From: a virus
DNA: 31,645 bases
Virus record (IMG/VR): IMGVR_UViG_3300013285_000565
Coordinates: 1 to 31,645 of that record
Reading direction: 5' to 3' (one strand)
Shown: positions 1 through 12,798 of the stretch, in pieces
Position numbering within the stretch: the first letter of the stretch is position 1
Layout: every line of letters begins with the position of its first letter
Notes under the pieces: model-generated
The model's database searches: none
Told to the model about the DNA's origin: nothing
Seen by the model: the letters and a program-made list of their open reading frames with translations, nothing else
Made by a program: the position numbers and the translations under genes

Positions 1-95
1 ATGCCTTTAATTAAGTTAGCACGGGCTGTTTCTTCTTTTTCTTTTTGCCTACGCTTTTGTGCTTCAACATAACTAGAATTTGTTTGTCTTATCAT
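1..95 (-). CDS. Start of a gene running off the left edge (function unknown)
   Basis: An ATG on the minus strand overlaps the TGA stop of the FecR-domain gene (ATGA arrangement), and the frame stays open for the 31 codons left in the window. The visible N-terminus begins MIRQTNSSYVEAQKRRQ and is very rich in Lys, Arg, Glu and Gln, so it looks soluble or coiled-coil at first. No signal peptide is seen. The overlap suggests translational coupling and membership of the curli-like operon. FecR-domain genes often have membrane-sensor partners, but nothing visible here supports that. The gene is cut by the window edge, so nothing can be said about function. Confidence 0.6.
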   Translation of the reverse strand, partial: MIRQTNSSYVEAQKRRQKEKEETARANLIKG

Positions 96-1216
96 CTCTG
101 TATCAACGTTATAACTGTTGATCCTCCACTGTTAACACGATTCTTGATGGTATCCATTGCGCCTTGTGTAAAATACATTGTTGTATTTTGAGTAGTAGGC
201 ACAGTTACACTCATCACATTACTGCCGTCATCCCTAACTAGTGTTATCTTTGGTTCTTGTATATCTACAGTTATGCCTGTCAGTGCATTATAATCTGGCA
301 ATAGTTTATTACTAGTTGTATTTAATAAATTTAATTGTGCTTTCATCATACTATCTATAATATCTAATATGTTAGCAAGAAAATTTTGATCAAGAAAATT
401 ACGTGCTAATTTATCTTGGAATACTTCTTTTTGCTGTTCGTCAAGGGCATTAGCAAGTCCTTGTTCTTTTAGAAAGTCCATATCTAATGCATTTTTCATT
501 TCAAGACGAGTATTAGTTTTCTCAGCTTGCTGATTCATTTCTTTAGGAGGAGCAACAATTAACATGTTATTAATAGCACCTTCGCTAAGTTTTAATACAA
601 CAGGCGGACTAGGCGGAGAACTTCTGCTGTCTACTCTGGTTGCTTGGAACGCTTGGTTTAGTATAACTTGCCCAGCATCACTTTCAACAACAATTTCTCC
701 AGTCTTACAATTTGTTTCAATATCGCTAACAGTTCTAGTCATGCGATCACTAGGACAACTAGGCAATAATATAAATGTACTGCGACCTAATTCGTCTACA
801 GTAGCAGTAAAGTCTGTACCACGTACACTAACAGTGGCGCTGGGAGTATTAATACCTACACTTTGCGGATTATTCTTGGCTATCTGTCCACTAGCATATC
901 GTACAGTTCCTAAAGCCATGTTGAGTGCTATCTTGCCAGATCCTTTCTTTGGATCGTATACAAAGTCGTCAATAACTAACTTTGAATTTTCGTTTACTTG
1001 TACTTTGGTTTGATCTTCAAACGTAATGCCAACCTTGCCCTGTGTAGTTCGAATAGAGTCGTTCATTTCCATGCCCGTGCCCTTAGCTCCAGTTAACGTT
1101 TGACTTTTACGTTGTATACTTGGAGCCGCGTTCATCTGTTCAGTTATAGTTCCAATAGCGGCGTAGCCCTGAGACATTGTCAACAGAGCTACGACACATA
1201 TTAAAAACTTAAACAT
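92..1216 (-). CDS. Secreted FecR-domain protein of the curli-like cassette
   Basis: 374 residues. Residues 1-19 form a signal peptide (hydrophobic LICVVALLTMS, then a YA-A cleavage-like site), so the protein is probably periplasmic or exported. Residues about 45-140 match the FecR fold: VGITFEDQTKVQV, then a SGKIALNMALGTVRY core and NTPSATVSVRGTDF. The rest is an alpha-helical region (about 225-300) and a beta-rich C-terminus, neither assigned. In classical systems FecR is an anti-sigma or iron-citrate signalling protein, but stand-alone secreted FecR domains also occur in surface and polysaccharide systems. No ECF sigma factor or TonB receptor is nearby, so an iron-sensing role is not supported. 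It starts two bases past the curlin-like stop without a clear Shine-Dalgarno, which suggests coupling. A co-secreted, anchoring or assembly factor for the curlin-like protein is a plausible inference. Confidence 0.75.
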   Translation of the reverse strand: MFKFLICVVALLTMSQGYAAIGTITEQMNAAPSIQRKSQTLTGAKGTGMEMNDSIRTTQGKVGITFEDQTKVQVNENSKLVIDDFVYDPKKGSGKIALNMALGTVRYASGQIAKNNPQSVGINTPSATVSVRGTDFTATVDELGRSTFILLPSCPSDRMTRTVSDIETNCKTGEIVVESDAGQVILNQAFQATRVDSRSSPPSPPVVLKLSEGAINNMLIVAPPKEMNQQAEKTNTRLEMKNALDMDFLKEQGLANALDEQQKEVFQDKLARNFLDQNFLANILDIIDSMMKAQLNLLNTTSNKLLPDYNALTGITVDIQEPKITLVRDDGSNVMSVTVPTTQNTTMYFTQGAMDTIKNRVNSGGSTVITLIQR

Positions 1217-1217
1217 G

Positions 1218-2156
1218 TTAACGCAATGCTGGTAACATTACACCACTAGCACCCTGTGTGATGCTAATAGTGTTGCTTGCTCCACTAATTTTTACATTAG
1301 CATCTTGAGCAGTACCGTTCTGGTTAATATTAACATTGTTACTAGCACCAGTGATACCCAGATTAGCCATGTTGCTTGTACCAGTTTGATTTACTTGTAC
1401 AGTATTGTTATCGCCAGATAACGAACTACCGCTAGAATATCCGCCAACTGTAACAGTATTCAAACTACCAGTTTGAGTTATACCAAATAAGTTTCCAGTA
1501 CTACTTACATCTATTCCAATGGCATTGCTACCAGTACCTGACTGATCAAGTATTGCTTGGTTTGATCCTCCAGTTCCGCTAAAACTAATATTAGCTGTAT
1601 TGCTACTTCCACGCATCTTTGAATAAACATCATCACTTGGGCCTGCTGTAGTAGCACTTATACTATTGCCGGTACCTGTGACATTAGCTTCAAACTTAGA
1701 ACTGTTGCCAGTTTGTAATACATTAATACTTGTCTTACTTGCATCTGCTTGTGATCCACCTGCATTAACATTGAATATAGCCGACGATCCTGTTACACCA
1801 TTTGTGCCAGTAGAATATGTAATATCAGTAGATATACCACTAGTCACCGATGCCGATATGCCTAGAGATACTGTATTACCAGATCCTACCTGTGTTATAG
1901 CAATGTTAGCACCGTCTGCATTAATTATAGCCGCATCAGTACGATTGCTTGTTAATGCCTTGACGGTATTGCCTGCGCCGTCTTGGGTAATGTTAATTAC
2001 AGCATTACTACCTGTTTGATCAATATAGATACTATTGTCTACAGCATAGCCCAATGTTGGCATTACAGCCAGCATCAGAATTGTGAGTACTTTTCTCGAC
2101 AACTCACCACCGCCTTTTAGACTTTTGTTCATACTTCCAAGACTCGGGTTGAACAT
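1218..2156 (-). CDS. Curlin-repeat (CsgA/CsgB-like) secreted protein
   Basis: 312 residues. An N-terminal basic segment is followed by a hydrophobic signal (VLTILMLAVMPTLGYA) with predicted cleavage before VDNS. The mature part is Asn/Gly/Ser/Thr-rich and built of imperfect curlin repeats of the form (I/V)xQxGxxNxAxI. Examples are YIDQTGSNAVINITQ, ITQVGSGNTVSL, ITQTGSLNTVTV, VNQTGTSNMANL and INQNGTAQDANV. Such repeats form the beta-solenoid of curli amyloid, with stacked Gln and Asn. There are about ten degenerate repeats, against five in E. coli CsgA, so this is a longer variant. It lies directly downstream of CsgG-like and CsgF-like genes and is their likely substrate. Start choice is uncertain: the first ATG has no good Shine-Dalgarno and sits three bases from a hairpin, while the second ATG (2132) also gives a complete signal peptide. 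A tail or capsid-decoration protein with similar repeats is the main alternative. Confidence 0.78.
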   Translation of the reverse strand: MFNPSLGSMNKSLKGGGELSRKVLTILMLAVMPTLGYAVDNSIYIDQTGSNAVINITQDGAGNTVKALTSNRTDAAIINADGANIAITQVGSGNTVSLGISASVTSGISTDITYSTGTNGVTGSSAIFNVNAGGSQADASKTSINVLQTGNSSKFEANVTGTGNSISATTAGPSDDVYSKMRGSSNTANISFSGTGGSNQAILDQSGTGSNAIGIDVSSTGNLFGITQTGSLNTVTVGGYSSGSSLSGDNNTVQVNQTGTSNMANLGITGASNNVNINQNGTAQDANVKISGASNTISITQGASGVMLPALR

Positions 2157-2159
2157 CTT

Positions 2160-2179
2160 GTTTGTAATTGTTTACAAAC
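2160..2179 (-). promoter_or_regulatory. Hairpin abutting the curlin-like start codon
   Basis: Perfect 8-bp inverted repeat GTTTGTAA/TTACAAAC with a 4-base loop, ending three bases before the ATG. It occupies the place where a Shine-Dalgarno should be. A TATAAACT box (2184-2191), 6/8 like the late promoter, lies just upstream, so the hairpin would sit at the very 5' end of such a transcript. It may restrict initiation or protect the mRNA. Confidence 0.55.
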
Positions 2180-2297
2180 GCTTAGTTTATACCCCTCGTC
2201 GCTCCTTGGCCAGTGGCCGTTATTGTTATCACCTCTTACTATTTAAATACATCTACTGCTTAATAATACTCCACTGTTATTTTTTCGTTACTCTCAG

Positions 2298-2331
2298 GTG
2301 TAAAAAAATTTACACTGTTGAAAAATCAACA
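2298..2331 (-). repeat. Two tandem hairpins after csgG
   Basis: Between the CsgG-like stop and the curlin-like gene lie two adjacent perfect inverted repeats. GTGTAAA/TTTACAC (2298-2304 and 2309-2315) and TGTTGA/TCAACA (2316-2321 and 2326-2331) each have a 4-base A/T loop. Read on the minus strand, the loops are U-rich but no T-tract follows, so a simple intrinsic terminator is not clear. An attenuator or mRNA-processing site that sets the csgG:curlin ratio is possible. The rest of the 185-base gap holds a GGCC-act-GGCC motif and a purine-rich stretch, and no convincing gene. Confidence 0.5.
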
Positions 2332-2341
2332 CCTAGTATCA

Positions 2342-3538
2342 CTACTGTTGTTTGTCAAAAATTGTATCCTTCTTGACAAAACCTTTACGCTTTTCAGCAT
2401 CTCTTACTTCTATCCAATCGCCTTCACTCCCGACGATGAATACAGTTGTACCCTTTTTAAACTGCCAGATCTTTGTGCTTTTTTCATCCATTTCTTTATA
2501 AATGAACTGTGCTTCTTTTAATACAACCTCCATTGGCATTTTTAAACCTTGCCCGATAACTGCTGGGTTTAAATTTACTTCTGCGGCGGTACTGGATATG
2601 TTTTCTGTTTTGGTTTCGGGCACGGCTTGCGGTTGAACCACGACATCTTTCTTATCCTCCACTTTTACTTCTTGTTTAATCTCACTACTAATTACAGGAA
2701 CAGGTTTTTGAACTACTGGAGCTTGTAAAACTACTGGAGTTTCTTGTTTGTATTCCCATATACCTTTTTTAGCACCTTCTTTAATTAACTCAACAACTGC
2801 CATTTCCGTGGCGGCTTTAACTGCATACGTTCCTGGTTCGTTAATAGTCAATCCTGCCTCTGCTTCAAATGCCTGTGTGCCTTGATCAAAGAATTTTAAT
2901 GCTGTAGCCGAGTCTGCTGTACTTAGTATTGTTTTCTGTACTGTAACTACTGCTAGTACTTTACCTGTGTTTACGCTAACTGCTCTTAAACTTATTGTAA
3001 CAGTGTCAGTTGACCACTGTGTTTGTTTACCAATACCAAATATACGCATACCAGCACCTCCGCTGGTAGTCGTAGCATCATATCCTACGATGCCTCCTTC
3101 CATAATAATACCTGCAAACTGCATGGGCATTAATGGTTTGGCATTTGCACCTTCATAAGCCTCACGCATTTGTCTTATGATAGTACGTTCCTTTGTGAGA
3201 TTATCAATCCCTACACGCTCAACTACCTCAAACCAGCGGCCTTGGCCAACACCTTGCAATGCTTGTATTAGAAATGTTTCTGCGCCCTGTGTAACTGCTG
3301 TTGATAAGCTGGCTACGTTTGCTTGTGGACGTCTTTGTCCTGTCTTATCTGTAAATCCGTAGACTGCTACGCTGACTGGTTTACCATTCGCTGGTGATGG
3401 AATGTTATCAAATTCTTTTTTGACATTTTCTCTTTGTGTAGTTATAGTTGGATCAGTTTCAGTCAATCCTGTGCTTTGAATGACTGCACACCCGGATAAC
3501 AATGAGACCACTGCAAAAATTAAAATAATCTTTTTCAT
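2342..3538 (-). CDS. csgG: CsgG-like outer-membrane secretion channel with C-terminal SH3-like domain
   Basis: 398 residues. Residues 1-17 form a lipoprotein signal with lipobox LLSGC (Cys17). Residues about 55-260 match CsgG, the nonameric outer-membrane pore that exports curli subunits: PVSVAVYGFTDKTGQ, STAVTQGAETFLIQAL, RWFEVVERVGIDNL, ERTIIRQ, IIMEGGIVGYDATT, GIGKQTQWSTDTVTISLR and VLAVVTVQKTIL. E. coli CsgG ends soon after this domain. Here a Pro/Val/Lys-rich linker (about 270-325) leads to a C-terminal SH3b-like domain (FKKGTTVFIVGSEGDWIEV), which suggests contact with peptidoglycan or a partner. The loop that forms the E. coli constriction (Tyr51, Asn55, Phe56 in mature numbering) reads PQANVASLSTAV, so both aromatics appear lost. 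The gene starts three bases after the CsgF-like stop. Strong family match; the role in a phage is inference. Confidence 0.88.
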   Translation of the reverse strand: MKKIILIFAVVSLLSGCAVIQSTGLTETDPTITTQRENVKKEFDNIPSPANGKPVSVAVYGFTDKTGQRRPQANVASLSTAVTQGAETFLIQALQGVGQGRWFEVVERVGIDNLTKERTIIRQMREAYEGANAKPLMPMQFAGIIMEGGIVGYDATTTSGGAGMRIFGIGKQTQWSTDTVTISLRAVSVNTGKVLAVVTVQKTILSTADSATALKFFDQGTQAFEAEAGLTINEPGTYAVKAATEMAVVELIKEGAKKGIWEYKQETPVVLQAPVVQKPVPVISSEIKQEVKVEDKKDVVVQPQAVPETKTENISSTAAEVNLNPAVIGQGLKMPMEVVLKEAQFIYKEMDEKSTKIWQFKKGTTVFIVGSEGDWIEVRDAEKRKGFVKKDTIFDKQQ

Positions 3539-3541
3539 GAT

Positions 3542-3988
3542 TTATTGGAATTGGAATTGACTCAAAGGAATCACCACCGTTGTTTGATTCCCAGTGACAT
3601 CAGTAACTTGCATAGTAACACTGGTTCCATCTTTTGTCCAGAATATAGTATTACCTTCAAATGATAATGTACCACTATTTGTGCCGCCATTAGCAAACAT
3701 AGCAGTTGCTAAATTTTGGCTAATTTGTGCATAGATACGACTTTCTAAGTTGTTTAAAAATTTAGCAATATTAGTATTGGCCTTGTCTGCTTTAGCTTTA
3801 TCTAATGCGGCTTGTATGTCTTTTTGTACTTGTACTTTGCGTGTGAATTCTTGATTTTCAATCGTTAGGACGTGACTACTGTAACCTACGCCATTAAAGC
3901 TAGGACTTTTAAACTGGTAGTCGCCTATTGGTGCCGCAAGACTATTCAAAGACACCAATAGTAGTAAAACTACTACGATTTTAGACAT
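3542..3988 (-). CDS. csgF: CsgF-like curli nucleation/secretion accessory protein
   Basis: 148 residues. Residues 1-18 are a signal peptide (VVVLLLLVSLNSLAA, cleaved before PIGDY). The mature N-terminus YQFKSPSFNGVGYSS resembles the E. coli CsgF segment FQFRNPNFGG, which inserts into the CsgG pore and forms a second constriction. Residues about 50-95 are helical (QKDIQAALDKAKADKAN, then LESRIYAQISQNL). The C-terminus is beta-rich (GNTIFWTKDGTSVTMQVTDVTGNQTTVVIPLS), as in CsgF. Length fits the family (E. coli 138). It is the first gene behind a perfect TATAAATA late promoter and sits immediately before csgG. CsgE and CsgB-type genes are not visible in the window. Confidence 0.82.
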   Translation of the reverse strand: MSKIVVVLLLLVSLNSLAAPIGDYQFKSPSFNGVGYSSHVLTIENQEFTRKVQVQKDIQAALDKAKADKANTNIAKFLNNLESRIYAQISQNLATAMFANGGTNSGTLSFEGNTIFWTKDGTSVTMQVTDVTGNQTTVVIPLSQFQFQ

Positions 3989-4015
3989 GGATTCGCCCCC
4001 ACTAATTCTTATTAG

Positions 4016-4023
4016 TATTTATA
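4016..4023 (-). promoter_or_regulatory. Late promoter of the curli-like operon
   Basis: Exact T4-type late promoter box TATAAATA on the minus strand, 28 bases before the csgF start. A small CTAAT/ATTAG hairpin and a G-rich stretch (GGGGGCG) precede the ATG. It implies expression with virion genes late in infection. Confidence 0.65.
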
Positions 4024-4050
4024 GGCGAAATTAAAGATTAAAGCTAGTGT

Positions 4051-5661
4051 TTATTCCCTATGATGTTCAGGAGTTTCAGGACCACTAACATTCATATTAG
4101 GATCTCCGATTTCTAAACTAGGGCGTTGTAGATCATCAGGTTCATGACGACTGGGCTTATGTTGGTGATGACCTTTAAAGGTCTTTTGTGGGCTAAATGT
4201 AGATGTTGTTTGATCTTGTACAGTAGGCTGAGTATTTTGTATAGGACTAGCAGTTGTATTATTGGCAGTAGCATCAGCATCTGGAACCGGACCTTTATCT
4301 TTGACAATTTGTGTTAGGCTATGTAGTAACGGACCTTTTTCAAAATAATTACTAGCTTTGTCTTCGCCCTGGAAGTATCTAATAGCTGTTAATACTTCGT
4401 GAGGAGCATTCGCATTACGAATTATAATACTAGGTTTACCGCTACGTGGGCCTAATGTTAGTTCTGCTTCTAAACTTATATTATTTCTAATCAATCGATT
4501 TTCTAACAATGCAAAGCTGTGTTGTGTATAGCCACCGTTTTTAAAACTAATTAATTTTAATGTACGATTTGAAGTTTTATCTTGATTTAAACCTGAACCA
4601 TGACGCATGATTAAATCAGCTAGATGTTCGATGAAAAGTGTAGTTTTTGTAGCACTAGCATTGGCAATTTCAGCATTAATTTTAGAGACAGCTTGTTTAT
4701 AGATAGTGATCCAGAATTTTAAAATATCAGTTTTGCCACGAGTCGGCATATCAAATGTAATGCCTAGTTCTTTAAATAGGCCGTTAGCACTGGCTAACCA
4801 TTTATCAGGGCCGCCTTGCAATCCGCCTGCACCGTGTTGTCCGTAAATGTCGCTATCGGCTTTGAGACTAATATCTACGTTCTTTAATGGACGCCAACCG
4901 CCTGGAGCACTAGCATCTTTGATACGTGCATTAACGTCAGTCTTGCGGCCTTTTTGATCGCTTACTCCATCACTGGTAATTCTAATTTCATCCACTTTGC
5001 CGTTTTTATAAAAATGGTTACTGTATTTTTCTATGTCAGCATCGTTAACATACATGATAGCAGAATGAAACAAATCTTCAACACGTGGCCAGTTTTTTGG
5101 GTTTTTAATAAACATCATACTGCCGCTTGGCAAACGTAAACTAAATTCAATATTATCAGCGATCATGCTGTTTTGATCATGTACCGGATAATGTACTTCT
5201 GTATTGCTTTTAGTAATACAATTCTTTAAAACTTGCTGTACTTCATCAATGCCGATTTTTTCAATTCTATCACTACCACGTTTAATTAGTTTAGCAGTGA
5301 GACTCGCACCTAACACGGCTTCTGCAATGTCACCGCGATTAAATTTGTCTGCGTGTAATAATCCAGTTTCAATGCCGCTTGGACTACCTTCTAAGCCGAA
5401 TACACTTTGATCTGCTTCTATACGTTTAAAGTATAGTACAGTATCTCCGTTACCTACTTTAATAACAGGACTTTTGGCAGGTGCAGTCTTAACCCATTCT
5501 AATTTTTCATCTGGGTTAAAAGTCTTAATCTCTTTTTGTATCTTAGTGACTAAGTCTTTACCCTTGGCAGATCCGTTAGAAACACGAACATGATGCCCGT
5601 ATGTGTATTTGGTATCTCTGGAGAAGATGCTGGCTTCGTTGATAATGTCTAAAATTTGCAT
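4051..5661 (-). CDS. Large protein of unknown function, possible internal head protein
   Basis: 536 residues, no recognised enzymatic domain. The N-terminus MQILDIINEASIF resembles the capsid-targeting sequence of T4 internal proteins (MKTYQEFIAEA). It has an I-x-E prohead-protease-like site at residues 7-9, with the same spacing as two other proteins in this window. Body: mixed alpha/beta with several Asp/Lys-rich stretches. Residues about 455-536 are a low-complexity Thr/Gln/His/Pro tail that looks disordered. Translation would start about two bases after the +1 predicted from the CATAAATA late box, with no Shine-Dalgarno. Late expression and the N-terminus suggest a protein packaged with the DNA, perhaps an enzyme. 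Confidence is high that it is a gene and low for function. Confidence 0.7.
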   Translation of the reverse strand: MQILDIINEASIFSRDTKYTYGHHVRVSNGSAKGKDLVTKIQKEIKTFNPDEKLEWVKTAPAKSPVIKVGNGDTVLYFKRIEADQSVFGLEGSPSGIETGLLHADKFNRGDIAEAVLGASLTAKLIKRGSDRIEKIGIDEVQQVLKNCITKSNTEVHYPVHDQNSMIADNIEFSLRLPSGSMMFIKNPKNWPRVEDLFHSAIMYVNDADIEKYSNHFYKNGKVDEIRITSDGVSDQKGRKTDVNARIKDASAPGGWRPLKNVDISLKADSDIYGQHGAGGLQGGPDKWLASANGLFKELGITFDMPTRGKTDILKFWITIYKQAVSKINAEIANASATKTTLFIEHLADLIMRHGSGLNQDKTSNRTLKLISFKNGGYTQHSFALLENRLIRNNISLEAELTLGPRSGKPSIIIRNANAPHEVLTAIRYFQGEDKASNYFEKGPLLHSLTQIVKDKGPVPDADATANNTTASPIQNTQPTVQDQTTSTFSPQKTFKGHHQHKPSRHEPDDLQRPSLEIGDPNMNVSGPETPEHHRE

Positions 5662-5668
5662 AGTACAA

Positions 5669-5676
5669 TATTTATG
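5669..5676 (-). promoter_or_regulatory. Late promoter box before the 536-residue gene
   Basis: CATAAATA on the minus strand, 8 bases upstream of the ATG and overlapping the end of the bilin reductase gene. With T4-like geometry +1 would fall about two bases before the ATG, giving an almost leaderless mRNA. Confidence 0.5.
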
Positions 5677-6352
5677 CTATATTAGGGAACAGACAATCTT
5701 GTATAAACGTTGTCACATCATCCTCGTTTAAGCCCAAACTAGCCATTACACGCGGTGTATGGGGGTTTTGCTTTTGATTATCGCAGTAGTAATTTTGATT
5801 ATCTGTAGTATTTACTGCGGTATTATTAGTTTCACCCACAGCTTCTAAATAATGCGCTAGTGTATCGCTAGCCATCTGTATAATTTGCTCTAATTCTGTT
5901 TCGTCTTGTACATTACCTGCGGCAACCATGCTAGAACTGAATATATTGGTAGCCCACTCGGGTAATGCCCGTTCCCTACGCCATTCGAGTCTTTTAACGT
6001 AATCGGAGAACCACTCCATCATAGGATGATCAGGATCGCCTGCTTTTGAATAATCATGGAAACAGCCGGTAATTTTATTCTTACCTGCTACAACATCGAA
6101 ACCGTAAATAGGTGCTGGATTGTGTATATGTGGAAAGATGCAACAATGCATCATCCATAGCCCTTTAGTTTCTCGAGCGTCTACAACATCCACATGAGCG
6201 CGGCGGTAACTATCAGAAGTCCATACGCGATTGATCCACCCAGGTTGATTAAAGCGATCCATACCTGGTTCAAATATTTCTGTACCTGTTTCATTGAAAC
6301 TGTCTTCCAGTAGATGTTGTATGGTTATTAATGTATCCCATACTTTACTCAT
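5672..6352 (-). CDS. pcyX: Ferredoxin-dependent bilin reductase, PcyA/PcyX type
   Basis: 226 residues from ATG 6352; a TTG four codons earlier is less likely. The FDBR family reduces biliverdin IXalpha to phycobilins using ferredoxin. The PcyA-type core is clear: MMHCCIFPHIHNPAPIYGFDVVAGKNK. His69 and Asp86 are spaced 17 apart, exactly like PcyA His88 and Asp105. The PcyA catalytic Glu76 position appears as Asp55 (AHVDV). Since that Glu serves 18-vinyl reduction in PcyA, its change fits the viral PcyX subgroup, which I recall makes phycoerythrobilin from biliverdin. The 8-base overlap with the heme oxygenase stop indicates co-translation. No ferredoxin gene is in the window, so host ferredoxin is presumably used. 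Family call strong; PcyX subtype likely but not proven. Confidence 0.83.
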   Translation of the reverse strand: MSKVWDTLITIQHLLEDSFNETGTEIFEPGMDRFNQPGWINRVWTSDSYRRAHVDVVDARETKGLWMMHCCIFPHIHNPAPIYGFDVVAGKNKITGCFHDYSKAGDPDHPMMEWFSDYVKRLEWRRERALPEWATNIFSSSMVAAGNVQDETELEQIIQMASDTLAHYLEAVGETNNTAVNTTDNQNYYCDNQKQNPHTPRVMASLGLNEDDVTTFIQDCLFPNIA

Positions 6353-6899
6353 CTTTGTACTCAACTAGATCTAACATTTCTTTAAAAGTCTGCGTAGCAA
6401 ATTCAAAACATACCACTGCTTCATCGGCCATGTCATCGCTAATGCGTTCACGAATAGCTGTCTTAAGGGTAATAGCATCTTCAAATTGATACATTCGGCC
6501 TGCGCCAGGAACTTTTTTAGAAATCATTTGTCCACCGGCTAAATCACCCATATGACGAACATAGATATGCGCCATAAGTTTTTTAGGATCGTCTTTAATA
6601 CTTAAAATATATTTGATATACTTTTCAGTATTTGTTAGTATATGTGGCTTGCCGTCAGCATCATCATCCCACAGTTCTTCAAAGTCTGCATGTATAGCGG
6701 GTGCTCTGCGAATGTCAGGCAACCCGTGTAATAATAAATGCGGCATTGCACATACTTCTAGTATCTCATAGCAAGGGTGCTGATTTTTCAAAAATGTCGC
6801 ATATAATTTAGGATTAATATCACCCGAGAATAAAATCTTTACGAACTCCTGTCTTTCGGCATTTTTATGTGCCTCGTGTGTTAAGTCACGTAAGCTCAT
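6345..6899 (-). CDS. ho1: Heme oxygenase (biliverdin-forming)
   Basis: 184 residues, the normal size of bacterial HO-1-type enzymes. It splits heme to biliverdin, CO and Fe2+ with ferredoxin or another reductant in the cytoplasm. N-terminal LTHEAHKNAERQEFV matches the proximal-heme helix, with His11 as the heme ligand. MGDLAGGQMI (residues 117-126) matches the distal-helix GDLSGGQ motif that allows heme to bend. The gene is coupled to clpS upstream (ATGA overlap) and to the bilin reductase downstream, so product hand-over of biliverdin is likely. Iron release may also matter for the phage-encoded iron enzymes. Confidence is high. Confidence 0.93.
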   Translation of the reverse strand: MSLRDLTHEAHKNAERQEFVKILFSGDINPKLYATFLKNQHPCYEILEVCAMPHLLLHGLPDIRRAPAIHADFEELWDDDADGKPHILTNTEKYIKYILSIKDDPKKLMAHIYVRHMGDLAGGQMISKKVPGAGRMYQFEDAITLKTAIRERISDDMADEAVVCFEFATQTFKEMLDLVEYKDE

Positions 6900-7198
6900 T
6901 CTTCCTCCAACCGTATTTGTAATGGAAATCCATTTGCACGGGCTACTGTTGTCGCTTCTACTGCTTTAGCTTCGGCGATTTCAAAACTGTATACACCTGC
7001 GATACCGCTTCCAGTTTCGTGAACAGTAATCATAATGTCTCGAGCTGTAACATCTGTGTGATGGAAAATTTCAATTAGTATACCTACAACAAAATCCATC
7101 GGCGTGGCTTCGTCATTCAAAAGAATAACTTTCCATCGTTTGGGCTCTGTCACAGTTACGTTGATCTTTTCATCTAATTGGATATCTGTTCCTGCCAT
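6896..7198 (-). CDS. clpS: ClpS, N-degron adaptor of ClpAP
   Basis: 100 residues, typical length. ClpS binds N-terminal Leu/Phe/Tyr/Trp residues of substrates and hands them to ClpA. The conserved core is present: WKVILLNDEATPMDFVVGIL and IMITVHETGSGIAGVYSFEIAE. Asn28, Asp29 and His60 correspond to the E. coli Asn34, Asp35 and His66 that grip the alpha-amino group. The N-terminal 20 residues needed to regulate ClpA are present. The stop overlaps the heme oxygenase start. A phage ClpS may redirect host ClpAP toward or away from N-degron substrates; that effect is inference. Confidence 0.92.
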   Translation of the reverse strand: MAGTDIQLDEKINVTVTEPKRWKVILLNDEATPMDFVVGILIEIFHHTDVTARDIMITVHETGSGIAGVYSFEIAEAKAVEATTVARANGFPLQIRLEEE

Positions 7199-7248: not shown

Positions 7249-7671
7249 TTATTTAATTGTGATTTGACGTGGTTTTAAGGCCTCTGGAACAATACGTTGG
7301 ATTTTGATGATCAACATACCGTCATTGACTTCAGCACCAGTAACTTCCATATATTCAGCAAGAGTATATGCTTGTTCAAAATCACGGCTTGCAAGCCCGC
7401 GATGCAGATATTCTTTACCTTCTGCATCTACAGATTTTTGTATACCGCGAACAACTAATTGATCTTGGTCTACTTCTACTGTGATTTCATCTTTGCTAAA
7501 TCCAGCTACTGCTACTTCGATAGCATAATCCTTGTCACTATATTTTACAATATTGTGTGGAGGATAGTTGCTGTTATTCAATCGTGCATTAAAAATGTGA
7601 TCGAAACCTACTAGTGCTCTACTTAGATTGGCAAGAGCTGCCGCGTCTATAGTTCTTAGTTGCATTGTCAT
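7249..7671 (-). CDS. hsp20: Small heat-shock protein (Hsp20/IbpA family)
   Basis: 140 residues. The alpha-crystallin domain spans about 40-130: DKDYAIEVAVAGFSKDEITVEVDQDQLVVRG, then LHRGLASRDFEQAYTLAEYM and the strand pair DGMLIIKIQR. The C-terminal ITI is the I-x-I anchor used in oligomer assembly. Class A bacterial (IbpA-like) features predominate. It is an ATP-independent holdase that passes clients to DnaK, which is encoded just upstream. The start is secure: AAGGAG lies 7 bases before the ATG. It has its own consensus sigma70-like promoter (7734-7762) at the end of dnaK, and the leader shares a 12-base block with dnaK. Hsp20 genes are known from marine T4-like phages. Confidence 0.92.
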   Translation of the reverse strand: MTMQLRTIDAAALANLSRALVGFDHIFNARLNNSNYPPHNIVKYSDKDYAIEVAVAGFSKDEITVEVDQDQLVVRGIQKSVDAEGKEYLHRGLASRDFEQAYTLAEYMEVTGAEVNDGMLIIKIQRIVPEALKPRQITIK

Positions 7672-7703
7672 AATTTTCTCCTTATATTAAGCAAGAACTT
7701 AGT

Positions 7704-7729
7704 AGGGCCCAATGATTGGCGCCCTACAT
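7704..7729 (-). promoter_or_regulatory. 5' terminal stem-loop of the hsp20 transcript
   Basis: Outer arms GTAGGGC/GCCCTAC plus inner CCAA/TTGG, with one bulged G and a 3-base loop. The first base of the stem (7728) falls where +1 is expected, 7 bases past the TATAAT box at 7734-7739. No T-tract follows, so a terminator for dnaK is unlikely. A 5' stem-loop of this kind would protect the mRNA from 5'-end-dependent decay. Confidence 0.6.
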
Positions 7730-7733
7730 GTTT

Positions 7734-7762
7734 ATTATATTACTTGTCTGTCTGTGTGTCAA
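7734..7762 (-). promoter_or_regulatory. Consensus sigma70-like promoter for hsp20-clpS-ho-pcyX
   Basis: Minus strand TTGACA (7757-7762), 17-base spacer, TATAAT (7734-7739): 12 of 12 consensus bases. It overlaps the dnaK stop codon. It suggests host-RNA-polymerase transcription of the hsp20, clpS, heme oxygenase and bilin reductase genes separately from dnaK. Confidence 0.75.
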
Positions 7763-9641
7763 CTTCTGCGAAGCTCGCATCAACTGTTTCGCCTTTCTTT
7801 TCGACTTCTTCAGCTTTTGCTTTCTCAGCTTTTTGTTTGGCAGTAAACACGGGTTGAGATTTTTCAAACAATGTTTGTGTTGCCTTTTGGATAGCTTCTA
7901 GATCTTCGCCTGCGACGGCTGTGTTTACTTCTGTTAATGCAGTTTCAAAAGCAGTCTTATCTTCTTCTGATAGTTTGTCTTTGAATTCTTCAAAGTCTTT
8001 CTTAACAGAGTGTGTTGCGCCTTCTGCATTGTTACGTGCTTCGATTAATTCCTTAGCCTTTTTATCAGCTTCGGCATTTTCTTCAGCTTCTTGTACCATG
8101 CGTTGGATTTCAGCTTCTGTCAAACCACTATCAGACTTGATAGTGATCTTGTTTTCTTTTCCAGTGTTTTTATCTTTGGCACTTACATTAAGAATACCGT
8201 TGGCATCCAAATCTAGTGTAACTTCAATTTGTGGTGTTCCACGCATCGCTGGAGCAATACCTTCCAAATTAAACTCACCTAGCATCTTGTTAAATTTAAA
8301 CAAGTCGCGCTCGCCTTGTCCAACTTTAATAGTTACAGCTGGTTGGTTATCTTCAGCAGTGCTGAATGTTTGGCTGTGCTTAGTTGGGATAGTTGTGTTC
8401 TTGGCAATTAGCTTGGTAAACACCCCGCCCATTGTTTCAATACCCAATGTTAATGGAGTAACGTCCAATAGCAATACGTCTGTCTTGTCGCCTGCCAACA
8501 CAGCACCCTGTACTGCGGCACCTGCGGCTACAGCTTCGTCTGGGTTAACATCTTTACGTGGAGCCTTGCCAAACAGTTTCTCAACTGCTTCTTGTACTTT
8601 AGGCATACGTGTTTGTCCACCAACTAGAATAACTTCGTCAATGTCTGCGGCAGTAACTTTGGCATCAGCCATAGCAATCTTACATGGTTCAATTGAACGC
8701 TTAATCAAGTCTTCAACCATTTGTTCAAACTTAGCCCGGCTTAGTTTGACGTTCAAATGCTTAGGGCCTGTTGCATCTGCTGTGATGTATGGCAAGTTAA
8801 CATCAGTGCTTGCGGCACTAGATAATTCAATCTTGGCCTTTTCAGCAGAGTCTTTCAAACGTTGTAAGGCCAGCATGTCTTTCTTAAGATCGATGCCAGA
8901 ATCTTTCTTGAATTCATCAACTAAGAAATCCATAATAGCTTGGTCAAAGTCTTCACCGCCAAGGAATGTATCTCCGTTTGTTGACAACACTTCAATTTGT
9001 TTATCGCCATCGATGTTAGCAATTTCGATAATTGAAATATCAAATGTACCACCACCTAGGTCGTATACAGCGATCTTGCGATCTTTCTTATCTTCTTTAT
9101 CAACGCCATAGGCCAGTGCAGCCGCAGTTGGTTCGTTGATAATACGTAGAACTTCCAAACCAGCGATGCGTCCAGCATCTTTAGTTGCTTGACGTTGGCT
9201 ATCGTTAAAGTAAGCAGGAACAGTAATGACCGCTTGTGTTACTGTTGTACCTAGATAGTCTTCAGCAGTCTTTTTCATTTTACGAAGTACTTCAGCTGAC
9301 ACTTGTTGTGGAGCAAGTTTCTCGCCGTTGGCTTCAATCCAAGCATCTCCATTATCAGCCTTGATAATAGTGTATGGCATTAAGTCAATGTCTTTTTGCA
9401 CTTCTTTCTCGTCAAACTTACGTCCGATTAGGCGCTTGCTTGCGTAGATAGTATTCTTTGGGTTAGTGACTGCTTGTCGTTTCGCTGTTGCACCTACTAG
9501 GATTTCATCCTTTGTATATGCAATGATTGATGGTGTTGTTCTAGCACCTTCGCTGTTTTCAATTACTTTAGCTTTTCCGTTTTCTAGGATTGCTACACAG
9601 CTATTTGTTGTACCTAAATCGATACCGATGATTTTGCTCAT
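7740..9641 (-). CDS. dnaK: DnaK (Hsp70) molecular chaperone, full length
   Basis: 633 residues, the size of cellular DnaK. The nucleotide-binding domain (1 to about 385) has all signature motifs: [35 protein letters not shown] and [13 protein letters not shown]. The hydrophobic linker [13 protein letters not shown] and the substrate-binding beta domain ([17 protein letters not shown]) follow, then a helical lid to about 600. The tail ends DTQTDK rather than the usual EEVKDKK-type end. The sequence looks betaproteobacterial (for example [22 protein letters not shown]), which suggests capture from such a host. Strong AAAGGAG lies before the ATG. DnaJ and GrpE are not in the window, so host co-chaperones may be used. 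It probably supports folding of late virion proteins; that role is inference. Confidence 0.96.
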
Positions 9642-9670
9642 AATAATCTCCTTTAATTAAGCAAGAAAAA

Positions 9671-9693
9671 TGTAAACCCTTACGGCGTTTACA
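9671..9693 (-). promoter_or_regulatory. Hairpin in the dnaK leader (5' stem-loop or terminator)
   Basis: TGTAAAC/GTTTACA arms plus an inner CC/GG pair give a stem capped by a GTAA (GNRA) loop. On the minus strand TTTTTCTT follows, which looks like an intrinsic terminator for mazG. However, a late box at 9698-9705 would put +1 at the first bases of this stem, and the sequence after it (TTCTTGCTTAAT) is shared with the hsp20 leader. That makes a 5' stem-loop of the dnaK mRNA at least as likely. Confidence 0.5.
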
Positions 9694-9697
9694 AATT

Positions 9698-9705
9698 TAT
9701 TTATC
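9698..9705 (-). promoter_or_regulatory. Late promoter box upstream of dnaK
   Basis: GATAAATA on the minus strand, 57 bases before the dnaK ATG. T4-like geometry places +1 at about 9692, the first base or two of the leader hairpin. The box differs from TATAAATA only at the variable first base. Confidence 0.45.
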
Positions 9706-10038
9706 TCAGATATTCTCTGTTTTAAAGATATTGGACCAAATTTTAAGTTTTTCACGTTTAGCTTCAGCCGCACGTTCAATATTACTAAAACTAACAATAT
9801 CAAGCTCTTGTAGAATATCTACCATAGCTTGTAAATCGCCCAGTTCTTCTTCCAAGTGTTCCCTGTTGGTTTTAGATTTTCCTGGCTTAAGATTATCCAG
9901 TCCGAAACGACTAATCTTACTTACCGCTTGTATAACTTCAGCACATTCTTCTTGGAGGATATCCATCACTTCTTTAGTTTGTGCGTTCATAGGGGCTGTT
10001 GGGAAATCGATTGGGTTATCTGTATTTGTATAATGCAT
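9706..10038 (-). CDS. mazG: MazG-like nucleoside triphosphate pyrophosphohydrolase
   Basis: 110 residues from ATG 10038, which has AAAGG nine bases upstream; a TTG ten codons earlier is unlikely. The all-alpha NTP pyrophosphatase motif is present: EECAEVIQAVSK (Glu30, Glu31, Glu34) and EEELGDLQAMVD (Glu65, Asp68), giving EExxE...ExxD metal ligands. The family hydrolyses (d)NTPs or related alarmone nucleotides to monophosphates. Phage MazG has been proposed to adjust nucleotide pools. Translation starts just inside the intergenic junction after the exonuclease gene, whose end carries its Shine-Dalgarno, so the two are co-expressed. Confidence 0.82.
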   Translation of the reverse strand: MHYTNTDNPIDFPTAPMNAQTKEVMDILQEECAEVIQAVSKISRFGLDNLKPGKSKTNREHLEEELGDLQAMVDILQELDIVSFSNIERAAEAKREKLKIWSNIFKTENI

Positions 10039-11304: not shown

Positions 11305-11611
11305 ATATCTCTTCAATAAATCTTTCTAATTGCTCATCTGAGTATTTGCTAAATTGTAATCCGGTCCCTTTGGCACGATTTACAAATTCATACAATTCTG
11401 GATCTTTGTATTTACTTACTTCAAAGGAAGCGAACTCATTTTTGGCATATTCTAAGTACAATTTATCTCTTACATCTAAATCAAGACTTTTACGGTCTTG
11501 TATTCTAGCCCAAAGTGTGCCACCAGTTGATTGTTCTTCGTTTTGTACATACCCGGTTAAGAACGGCTCTTTACTTCGATCTCGCCCAGTGGGTTTTTTA
11601 TCATGTAAGTC
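11264..11611 (-). CDS. -1 frame extension of the membrane protein at 11557-12798
   Basis: From the slippery site the -1 frame is open for 115 codons to the TAA at 11264. The first 50 codons contain no ATG, GTG or TTG. The first usable start is TTG 11461, with AAGAG upstream. The translation looks like real protein throughout ([47 protein letters not shown]). It would extend the upstream product to 511 residues. Alternatives are a short gene from TTG 11461, or a single-base sequencing or assembly error near 11560-11620 that has split one gene. The end overlaps the next gene by 41 bases. Confidence 0.55.
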   Translation of the reverse strand, partial: DLHDKKPTGRDRSKEPFLTGYVQNEEQSTGGTLWARIQDRKSLDLDVRDKLYLEYAKNEFASFEVSKYKDPELYEFVNRAKGTGLQFSKYSDEQLERFIEEIYELRKNQLNNTTR

Positions 11612-12798
11612 TTTTTTTTTGAATCAGTTTCTTCCAAGTTAACTTCGGTGCCCTGTGTATCGATGTAGGAATCGCCACGGGCAACACGTTCTTCAACTGT
11701 GGATTCGTCGATATGCTTTTGTAATTCTGGAAGTATTTGATATTTTTTTGATTCAGCTTCCTTCACTGCTTCAGCCTCAGCTTCCTCGATCATAGCATTC
11801 CATTGCTCGATAGGCATTGGAAACTCAGGTTCTATGTCTGTGGTGGTAATTGTAGTATCAGCAGTTGGGTAATCAGGCTCATGTTCCTCTTCAACAAATT
11901 TATAATCAACTGTCGGTTCACTAACAGTTTCGACTGCTTCAGGTATTACTGCTTCAACTTCTTGGGCAATAAATCCGTGATTATTAACTGCTTCTGTTAA
12001 ATCTTCTGCTTGGTCATCTAACCATGTTTTTTCTTTTTCTTCTTTAGCCCAAACAAATGTCATTTGTGCGGCCAGTAACATGATAACTGCCAGTGGATCG
12101 AATACAATAACAATAAGGATAATAATCCAAGTTACTGCTTGCTCTAACATGTTTTCATCTGCGCCATGGTCTCCGTATAGAAACTTGGCAATATATTTGA
12201 TAGGGCCTACTTCTGCTTCAACCTTTCGGACTTCAGCCGCGATTGGCGCACGTTCTTCGCTAAGGGAGGCAATAGCTTTCTGTTCGGATGTAATTTCAGA
12301 TTGAAGGCGGGCTCTTTCTTTTTGCTGGCCTCTTCTAATAGCAACTGCTTTCTCGGCACCTTTTTCATCACTGCTTCGACCCATAACTTGGTCCACAGCC
12401 TCATCCATCTGTTTAAGCGCCTTCCGGTTCGCATCGATATTATCCTTTGCTGTTTTAATCTTTTCGTCGTAGATGGCGATCTTACTAGTAACATCGCCCG
12501 ACACTAAGTTTTGATCGTTATGTGCTTTGGAGAGGAATCCAAAGATACCCATTGAAGTAATCAGCATTAGTACTGTTACTGCAACACACATGTAGACTTT
12601 CATCAACATGGGAACACGTTCCCAATTGGCTTTAATCCAGCTTGCACATACTAGTTTAGCAACTTCTAACGAAGCTCCCATAACTATGATTGGAATTACC
12701 GCCGCAGAAAATATAGCGGTCAAACCTACTACAGAGTAGTAAATTGCGACCGCCGATATTGTTAAACCTGTTAGTAGTAATAGATACGCTAATATCAT
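11557..12798 (-). CDS. Phage membrane protein with coiled coil, probable frameshift donor
   Basis: 413 residues in frame 0. Residues about 1-45 and 65-95 are hydrophobic (LAYLLLLTGLTISAVAIYY, IFSAAVIPIIVMGASLEVA, VYMCVAVTVLMLITSMGIF). Residues 110-205 form a charged coiled coil. A further membrane pair lies near 225-255 (VTWIIILIVIVFDPLAVIMLL). An acidic, disordered Glu-rich stretch follows to about 390. I recall similar proteins as conserved hypotheticals in marine T4-like phages; the function is not known. Near the end the codons TCA AAA AAA AAG occur, after which frame 0 continues for only 18 codons while frame -1 stays open for 115. The start ATG has an AGG-containing Shine-Dalgarno close by. 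Confidence 0.72.
   Translation of the reverse strand: MILAYLLLLTGLTISAVAIYYSVVGLTAIFSAAVIPIIVMGASLEVAKLVCASWIKANWERVPMLMKVYMCVAVTVLMLITSMGIFGFLSKAHNDQNLVSGDVTSKIAIYDEKIKTAKDNIDANRKALKQMDEAVDQVMGRSSDEKGAEKAVAIRRGQQKERARLQSEITSEQKAIASLSEERAPIAAEVRKVEAEVGPIKYIAKFLYGDHGADENMLEQAVTWIIILIVIVFDPLAVIMLLAAQMTFVWAKEEKEKTWLDDQAEDLTEAVNNHGFIAQEVEAVIPEAVETVSEPTVDYKFVEEEHEPDYPTADTTITTTDIEPEFPMPIEQWNAMIEEAEAEAVKEAESKKYQILPELQKHIDESTVEERVARGDSYIDTQGTEVNLEETDSKKKTYMIKNPLGEIEVKSRS
11611..11622 (-). other. Slippery sequence TCA AAA AAA AAG (site 1)
   Basis: A9 run followed by G, containing the A AAA AAG heptamer known from E. coli dnaX -1 frameshifting. A GGAAGA element about 12 bases upstream may act like an internal Shine-Dalgarno. 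A run of nine A can also cause RNA-polymerase slippage. The downstream structure is weak: ACCC could pair with a GGGT about 40 bases later. Confidence 0.55.

What the first reader, a model, noticed from the sequence alone, without database searches (positions are those of the whole stretch)
92..4023. A curli-like (type VIII) secretion cassette in a phage genome
Seen: CsgF-like and CsgG-like genes, a curlin-repeat protein and a FecR-domain protein form one minus-strand unit, all with signal peptides, embedded among phage genes. Known: CsgG is the outer-membrane pore and CsgF its partner in curli amyloid export. Inference: the phage makes its own pore and amyloid-like substrate late in infection, possibly for envelope permeabilisation, surface remodelling, superinfection exclusion, or trapping progeny and neighbouring cells. 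I recall csgG/csgF-type genes being mentioned in pelagimyophage genomes, so the genes may not be new. The linked substrate, FecR partner and mechanism appear unexplained.
Basis: partly seen in the sequence, partly recalled or inferred. Interest (0 to 1): 0.85.

Follow-up and report, generated by a model that had tools for sequence, protein, structure and literature searches.

The report
Phage curli-type amyloid export cassette
A large T4-like phage carries a full set of genes for exporting a curli-like sticky amyloid from its host, an arrangement already reported in ocean phages, but here the pore has an extra tail, the genes sit beside the phage's own chaperones, and they appear to be switched on late by the same kind of RNA hairpin and late promoter that T4 uses for its lysis enzyme.

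Summary
Minus-strand csgF, csgG, a curlin-repeat gene and a FecR-domain gene form one unit in a phage contig. The core idea is not new: PMC7029224 (2020) and PMC9599517 (2022) describe CsgF-CsgG-CsgA/B-FecR-CsgA/B-adenylate cyclase cassettes in pelagiphages, and cultured phages Melnitz and HTVC008M have the same order. The window's cassette is cut by the contig end: all 49 relatives with enough sequence go on to a CHASE2 adenylate cyclase, usually after a second curlin.

New here: (1) csgG carries a C-terminal SH3b tail in about two thirds of this clade's variants. (2) The cassette lies next to phage dnaK-hsp20-clpS-hemO-bilin reductase. (3) The csgF leader combines a late-type promoter with a hairpin hiding the ribosome-binding site, the T4 gene e/I-TevI layout; its arms covary (0 of 20,000 arm swaps as good, three control leader sets null). 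(4) The 'FecR' is a secreted periplasmic protein paired with CHASE2 cyclases, not an anti-sigma FecR.

Most likely it is a working, late-expressed amyloid exporter. What the fibre does is undecided. New variant of a known kind, medium interest.

The parts
92..1216 (-). FecR-domain secreted protein (374 aa): signal peptide, FecR domain (about residues 50-220), helical linker, C-terminal six-strand domain ending ITLIQR
   Evidence: PF04773 1.1e-10; AF2 pLDDT 77; VIA Z 15.6 to PupR 6ovk; dN/dS 0.05-0.07
1218..2156 (-). curlin-repeat protein Cur1 (312 aa as called; start at 2126 equally likely), proposed exported amyloid subunit
   Evidence: PF07012 x3; CsgB NCBIfam 5e-10; phmmer to 8c50 curlin 2.8e-6; AF2 pLDDT 79, regular short strands
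2342..3538 (-). CsgG outer-membrane pore lipoprotein (398 aa)
   Evidence: PF03783 5.6e-47; phmmer to solved CsgG chains 1e-45; lipobox LSGC; alignment
2360..2512 (-). C-terminal SH3b domain of CsgG (residues 343-393), inferred periplasmic
   Evidence: PF06347 3.6e-7 above cut-off; long tails in 46 of 70 phage CsgG variants; no SH3 hit in 5 long CsgGs of bacterial genomes
3542..3988 (-). CsgF (148 aa), partner at the mouth of the CsgG pore
   Evidence: PF10614 1.4e-13
3992..4029 (-). hairpin that pairs the Shine-Dalgarno region of csgF (GGGGGCG) with an upstream arm (CGCC)
   Evidence: fold z -2.55, -12.5 kcal/mol; arm covariation over 39-41 leaders, 0 of 20,000 swaps as good
4016..4023 (-). 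T4-type late promoter -10 motif TATAAATA, between the hairpin arms, 28 nt before csgF
   Evidence: 9 of 11 ATAAATA on the minus strand lie in the 60 nt before a start; TAAATA in 59 of 68 csgF leaders against 3% of random windows
4051..5661 (-). 536-aa protein of unknown function between the two blocks; poorly conserved in sequence
   Evidence: PHROGs 33928 and 3560 only
5672..6364 (-). ferredoxin-dependent bilin reductase (PcyA/PcyX type); neighbouring block
   Evidence: PF05996 3.4e-15
6345..6899 (-). heme oxygenase; neighbouring block
   Evidence: PF01126 1.8e-22
6896..7198 (-). ClpS-like adaptor; neighbouring block
   Evidence: read from sequence; syntenic homologues
7249..7671 (-). Hsp20-like small heat-shock protein; neighbouring block
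   Evidence: read from sequence; ROSE_3 leader
7740..9641 (-). full-length DnaK; neighbouring block
   Evidence: PF00012 4.1e-258

Best explanation
This is a phage-borne curli-type (type VIII) export cassette, switched on late in infection. CsgG inserts as a lipoprotein pore in the outer membrane of the infected cell, CsgF docks at its mouth, and the curlin-repeat protein (plus a second one beyond the contig end) is exported to form amyloid on the cell surface. Long early transcripts reading into csgF are blocked by a hairpin hiding its ribosome-binding site. Transcripts from the late promoter placed between the hairpin arms lack the 5' arm and are translated, as in T4 gene e. The SH3b tail of CsgG probably ties the pore to peptidoglycan. 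The FecR protein probably sits in the periplasm as partner or sensor for the inner-membrane CHASE2 cyclase encoded next to it. The adjacent phage DnaK and Hsp20 may keep the amyloid precursors soluble. Shown: the genes, order, conservation, domain content, late motif and hairpin covariation. Inferred: export, amyloid formation, timing of protein synthesis, partnerships. Most likely benefit (inference, weak): amyloid around lysing cells that gathers hosts or blocks competing phages.
For: Family hits for all parts. Beta-solenoid-like model of Cur1 (Z 15-16 to beta-helix proteins). Same gene order in Melnitz and HTVC008M and complete in 49 of 49 long relatives. Purifying selection, dN/dS 0.05-0.17. 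Late motif enriched upstream of starts (P 7.5e-9) and present before csgF in 59 of 68 relatives. Arms of the csgF hairpin match their own partner better than swapped partners (z -6.4), while dnaK, hsp20 and clpS leaders show no such effect. T4 precedent PMC3014915, PMC2988022. CHASE2-cyclase neighbours for 13 of 20 bacterial FecR relatives, about 0.1 expected from 27 CHASE2 genes in 16 genomes. DnaK binds CsgA/CsgB signal peptides in E. coli (PMC6123696).
Against: No protein was tested. Clumping was not seen in Melnitz infections (PMC9004378). No csgE, csgC or csgD found. About a third of the csgF leaders show no convincing hairpin, and the window's own outer stem is only of middling strength. 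The SH3 tail is missing in about a third of the variants. In most phage cyclases the transition-state Asn is Ser, so activity is uncertain. The chaperone block occurs without curli genes in 9 of 41 contigs, so the link is proximity, not dependence.
Confidence: 0.6

Rival explanations
1. The CsgG/CsgF pore is a lysis or permeabilisation device (pinholin-like or depolarising pore) and the curlin and FecR genes plug or gate it.
For: Proposed for Melnitz from structure models (PMC9004378). The csgF leader has the same early-block layout as T4 lysozyme. The window encodes a cell-wall hydrolase but I saw no obvious holin. No CsgE gate gene was seen.
Against: CsgG sits in the outer membrane, whereas lysis timing normally needs an inner-membrane holin. 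A pore alone would not need two curlins, a FecR protein and a cyclase, with the window's genes under purifying selection. The same leader layout also serves T4 soc and homing endonucleases.
Confidence: 0.15
2. The pore is an uptake channel that feeds the infected cell with large nutrients or siderophores.
For: Suggested in PMC7029224 and PMC9599517. Heme oxygenase lies nearby.
Against: Late timing fits feeding poorly. It leaves the curlins and CsgF unexplained. The FecR is not of the iron-signalling anti-sigma build.
Confidence: 0.07
3. The cassette mainly makes an envelope cAMP-signalling unit (FecR protein plus CHASE2 cyclase) that reprogrammes the host, with curli as one output.
For: A CHASE2 cyclase is present in 49 of 49 long relatives. 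FecR and CHASE2 genes are linked in bacteria and in the Burkholderia BiofilmReg operon.
Against: The transition-state Asn is replaced by Ser in most phage cyclases. Late expression leaves little time for reprogramming. The cyclase lies outside this contig and was not seen here.
Confidence: 0.1
4. Bacterial contig or chance assembly.
For: Curli genes are typical of bacteria.
Against: Virion genes on the contig, T4-type capsid on contigs with the same cassette, late promoters, CsgG within a phage clade.
Confidence: 0.01

Closest known systems
Pelagiphage T8SS cassettes (HTVC008M, Melnitz, HTVC023P-type podophages; PMC7029224, PMC9599517, PMC9004378)
   Same: csgF-csgG-curlin-fecR-(second curlin)-CHASE2 cyclase in the same order and strand; CsgG 43-44% and FecR 37-47% identical
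   Different: Separate CsgG clade (100/98 support); SH3b tail on CsgG; chaperone and bilin block alongside; hairpin/late-promoter leader; larger phages (contigs up to 357 kb)
E. coli curli system csgBAC-csgDEFG
   Same: CsgG, CsgF and curlin-repeat substrate
   Different: No CsgD, CsgE or CsgC seen; FecR and CHASE2 cyclase added; aromatic constriction residues Y51/F56 (numbering from memory) not kept in the alignment
Operon of Hyphomonas sp. TMED17 (L108, 705-kb contig)
   Same: csgF-csgG-curlin-fecR-CHASE2 cyclase in one bacterial operon, against the statement that FecR and cyclase are not part of bacterial curli operons
   Different: CsgG on a long branch (2.05); one curlin; FecR C-terminus lacks the final Ile-x-x-Gln; CsgG of 273 aa, too short for an SH3 tail
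T4 gene e, soc, 49 and I-TevI leaders (PMC3014915, PMC2988022)
   Same: Ribosome-binding site hidden in a hairpin on long transcripts; late promoter placed so that late transcripts lack the 5' strand
   Different: Controls csgF; not tested by experiment; hairpin not convincing in about a third of relatives
FecR-CHASE2 pairs such as Burkholderia BiofilmReg (PMC5192318)
   Same: Secreted FecR-domain protein encoded next to a CHASE2 sensor
   Different: There LysM-FecR plus a histidine kinase; here FecR plus a cyclase inside a curli cassette

Membership tests
Type VIII (curli) secretion system | CsgG-family pore lipoprotein | tested here: met
   PF03783 5.6e-47, 1e-45 to solved CsgG, lipobox Cys
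Type VIII (curli) secretion system | CsgF partner | tested here: met
   PF10614 1.4e-13, in 48 of 49 long loci
Type VIII (curli) secretion system | curlin-repeat substrate | tested here: met
   PF07012 three stretches, CsgB model 5e-10, phmmer to 8c50, solenoid-like model
Type VIII (curli) secretion system | CsgE gate / CsgD regulator / CsgC | tested here: inconclusive
   Not among the named genes of the two annotated cassettes and no such family among the window proteins scanned; not all window proteins were scanned and the contig ends at the cassette; PMC9599517 reports their absence in pelagiphages
Type VIII (curli) secretion system | secretion of an amyloid fibre through the pore | not testable with these tools
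   Needs expression, Congo red or thioflavin and microscopy
FecR anti-sigma regulators | cytoplasmic anti-sigma domain plus one transmembrane helix before the FecR domain | tested here: not met
   The only N-terminal element is the signal peptide; the FecR domain begins near residue 50; no other Pfam hit
FecR anti-sigma regulators | FecR (cell-surface-signalling) fold | tested here: met
   VIA Z 15.6, rmsd 2.8, 136 aligned to PupR 6ovk; Z 14.4 to 4m0n
[quoted passage not shown]
   TATAAATA 4016-4023; TAAATA in 59 of 68 leaders
T4 gene e-type early/late translation switch | hairpin pairing the ribosome-binding site with sequence 5' of the late start | tested here: met
   z -2.55, arm-swap test z -6.4, 0 of 20,000; not in every relative
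T4 gene e-type early/late translation switch | early block and late translation | not testable with these tools
   Needs infection time course or reporter
ROSE RNA thermometer (neighbouring hsp20 and dnaK) | Rfam ROSE model above gathering score | tested here: not met
   ROSE_3 30.2 bits, E 0.0027, gathering 43; so it looks like a ROSE element but is not filed as a member
ROSE RNA thermometer (neighbouring hsp20 and dnaK) | upstream stem plus UUGCU strand facing the AGGAG | tested here: met
   55 distinct hsp20 leaders, 8 of 10 stem pairs with changes on both sides; single-sequence fold pairs the UUCUUGCUU strand with AAGGAGAA

The most novel reading that the evidence does not exclude
A phage lineage uses a T4 lysozyme-type RNA switch to release, only late in infection, a complete amyloid-secretion machine with a probably peptidoglycan-anchored pore, supported by phage chaperones that are themselves under RNA-thermometer-like leaders. 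The FecR protein would be a periplasmic retention and signalling piece coupled to a phage CHASE2 cyclase.
Probability: 0.4. Interest if true: 0.72.

Novelty: new variant of a known kind. Interest (0 to 1): 0.55.

Why it matters
Phage-encoded curli has been known since 2020 with its role and timing unsettled. A conserved late-promoter and hairpin layout places it with late genes such as lysozyme, which narrows the options to events around lysis and release and makes timing directly testable. The FecR-CHASE2 pairing, also found in a bacterial curli operon, replaces the iron-regulator reading of the 'FecR' gene with a testable envelope-signalling one. The cassette also extends from marine pelagiphages to a second, deep CsgG clade in larger T4-like phages.

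Tried and rejected
Bacterial contig: rejected. Anti-sigma FecR: rejected on architecture. Curlin-like C-terminal tail of FecR: the last strand (ITLIQR) resembles curlin ends, and 60 of 64 FecR variants keep the motif, but profile comparison with Cur1 and Cur2 is no better than the best shuffled columns, and the domain's weak structural matches are to unrelated beta-rich proteins; left as unproven. FecR as a retention plug: Foldseek and VIA matched residues 18-113 to 5ix9 'cell surface anchoring domain' (Z 7.1), only a lead. Exact TATAAATA conservation before csgF: only the window has the full octamer (1 of 66); the conserved core is TAAATA. A first genome-contig scan with the single CsgG protein found nothing; the alignment query worked. 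Profile of FecR against PDB sequences found nothing credible. No curlin structure was listed among the fold matches of Cur1, which gave only general beta-helix proteins; this is not evidence against curlin. Rfam at gathering threshold gave nothing on the window.
Full report
Observation. The four minus-strand genes exist as described and pass curated Pfam thresholds: FecR 92-1216, curlin repeats 1218-2156, CsgG 2342-3538, CsgF 3542-3988. CsgG matches solved E. coli CsgG and has a lipobox cysteine; the other three begin with signal-peptide-like segments. The window is a whole viral record of 31,645 bases. It carries a tail spike, a virion protein, a phage exonuclease and a PAAR protein, and three large contigs with the same cassette encode a T4-type Gp23 capsid.

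Extent. The contig ends 91 bases after fecR. Among 80 related viral contigs the order dnaK-hsp20-clpS-hemO-bilin reductase-csgF-csgG-curlin-fecR-(curlin)-CHASE2 cyclase recurs. Of 49 contigs with at least 9 kb after csgG, all have the first curlin, FecR and the cyclase, and 48 have CsgF. In the nearest relatives, L004 and L007, a second small curlin follows fecR. So the window holds the first four genes of a longer cassette. All four are under purifying selection (dN/dS 0.05-0.17).

What is already known. CsgF and CsgG in pelagimyophages were reported in 2020, with an unidentified operon partner set and the 'sibling capture' idea (PMC7029224). In 2022 the full set including CsgA/B, FecR, histidine kinase and adenylate cyclase was reported in podo- and myo-pelagiphages (PMC9599517), and the OM43 phage Melnitz was described with a lysis-pore proposal and no observed clumping (PMC9004378). 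The annotated Melnitz and HTVC008M cassettes have the same order, and their cyclases carry CHASE2 domains. The finding itself is therefore not new.

What differs here. A CsgG tree puts the window in a clade of viral contigs (100/98) apart from the marine phage clade; both group with Hyphomonas sp. TMED17 (98/93), whose branch is long. CsgG has a C-terminal SH3b domain (PF06347). Lengths show that about two thirds of the variants have such a tail (46 of 70); Melnitz and HTVC008M are too short for it, and five long CsgGs from bacterial genomes that I scanned have no SH3 hit. Because the CsgG C-terminus is periplasmic (established knowledge), a peptidoglycan tether is the natural guess, not shown. 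The short CsgG-like contigs in MAGs labelled Rhodobacteraceae, Pirellulales, Flavobacteriaceae and Pelagibacter (L101-L105, L107) fall beside the marine phages and are probably phage contigs in bacterial bins.

Timing. ATAAATA occurs 11 times on the minus strand of the window; 9 lie within 60 nt upstream of a start, 0.9 expected (P 7.5e-9), and none occurs on the plus strand. They precede the tail spike, a virion protein, the cell-wall hydrolase and csgF among others, which fits the T4 late promoter. In relatives, TAAATA lies within 75 nt upstream of csgF in 59 of 68 distinct leaders against 3% of random windows. The csgF Shine-Dalgarno region lies in a hairpin whose other arm is upstream of this motif (3992-4029, fold z -2.55). 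Across 39-41 distinct leaders the arms change but stay complementary: own pairs average -12.2 kcal/mol, swapped pairs -9.8, and none of 20,000 permutations is as good. The same test on dnaK, hsp20 and clpS leaders is null. About a third of the leaders have no good pairing. T4 gene e, soc, 49 and I-TevI hide the ribosome-binding site in an RNA helix; for gene e and I-TevI the late transcript lacks the 5' strand and is translated (PMC3014915, PMC2988022). I infer that the cassette is silenced early and made late. Early/late behaviour itself is untested.

The FecR gene. Earlier work calls it an iron-dependent regulator. The protein has a signal peptide, no transmembrane or anti-sigma segment, a domain with the fold of the PupR cell-surface-signalling domain (Z 15.6), a helical linker and a six-strand C-terminal domain. 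In 20 bacterial loci with FecR relatives from one order, 13 have a CHASE2-type cyclase gene within about 7 kb. With 27 CHASE2 genes in 16 genomes I expect about 0.1 by chance. A LysM-FecR/CHASE2 kinase pair lies in a Burkholderia biofilm operon (PMC5192318). Hyphomonas sp. TMED17 carries csgF-csgG-curlin-fecR-CHASE2 cyclase together on a 705-kb contig amid bacterial genes, which qualifies the published statement that FecR and cyclase are not part of bacterial curli operons. I conclude that the FecR protein is most likely the periplasmic partner of the CHASE2 cyclase, and possibly of the pore. Most phage cyclases keep both metal aspartates, the adenine-selecting lysine and aspartate and the arginine, but have Ser for the transition-state Asn, so activity is uncertain.

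The substrate. Cur1 is predicted with fair confidence (pLDDT 79) as a run of short strands that aligns with beta-helix proteins at Z 15-16. Sequence profiles match CsgB and a solved curlin. Amyloid formation is not shown.

Neighbouring genes. Most contigs with this DnaK and enough downstream sequence carry curli genes (32 of 41), as do those with the bilin reductase (51 of 58), so the chaperone/bilin block and the curli block are neighbours that can exist apart. In E. coli, DnaK keeps CsgA and CsgB export-competent by binding their signal peptides (PMC6123696), which would give the proximity a function (inference). The hsp20 and dnaK leaders carry a ROSE-like element, described under noticed in passing.

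Verdict. It is a real, conserved phage T8SS cassette, of a kind already described, in a second phage clade and with new features: the pore tail, the late switch and the chaperone context. Best-supported mechanism: late-made amyloid exporter (0.6). Main rival: lysis or permeabilisation pore (0.15). The habitat and host of this clade were not determined with the tools.

Noticed in passing
window 7666-7728 (-), upstream of hsp20; 9641-9706 (-), upstream of dnaK: ROSE-like RNA thermometer leaders in a phage: a GC stem followed by UUGCUUAA facing AAGGAG. Rfam ROSE_3 E 0.0027 (below gathering) at hsp20; 69 hsp20 and 59 dnaK leader variants share the element; 8 of 10 stem pairs in hsp20 leaders show double changes.
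   Followed up: partly
window 5672-6899 (-): Heme oxygenase and ferredoxin-dependent bilin reductase pair of the PcyA/PcyX kind known from aquatic phages (PMC11480375). Some relatives carry two bilin reductases in tandem (L030, L051, L053, L058).
   Followed up: partly
window 7740-9641 (-): Full-length DnaK (633 aa, PF00012 4e-258) with Hsp20 and a ClpS-like protein; at least 580 related viral stretches.
   Followed up: partly
L007 13669-14256; L004 13445-14152: Second curlin with a fixed C-terminal tail MNIQCNPCGSGWSYTKF in the window's closest relatives.
   Followed up: no
window 4051-5661 (-): 536-aa protein between the bilin reductase and csgF with no Pfam hit and low conservation (23-44% identity in relatives).
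   Followed up: no
L101-L105, L107 (genome contigs): Short contigs binned as Rhodobacteraceae, Pirellulales, Flavobacteriaceae and Pelagibacter carry phage-type curli genes and group with marine phages; likely phage contamination of MAGs.
   Followed up: partly
OR851715.1 (L191): A 1,499-base unverified 'Salmonella phage' wastewater contig encodes a CsgG 39% identical to this one; its label is doubtful.
   Followed up: no
window 11557-12798 (-): Membrane protein with a weak Peptidase_S74 (tail-fibre chaperone) match near residue 260; odd combination.
   Followed up: no
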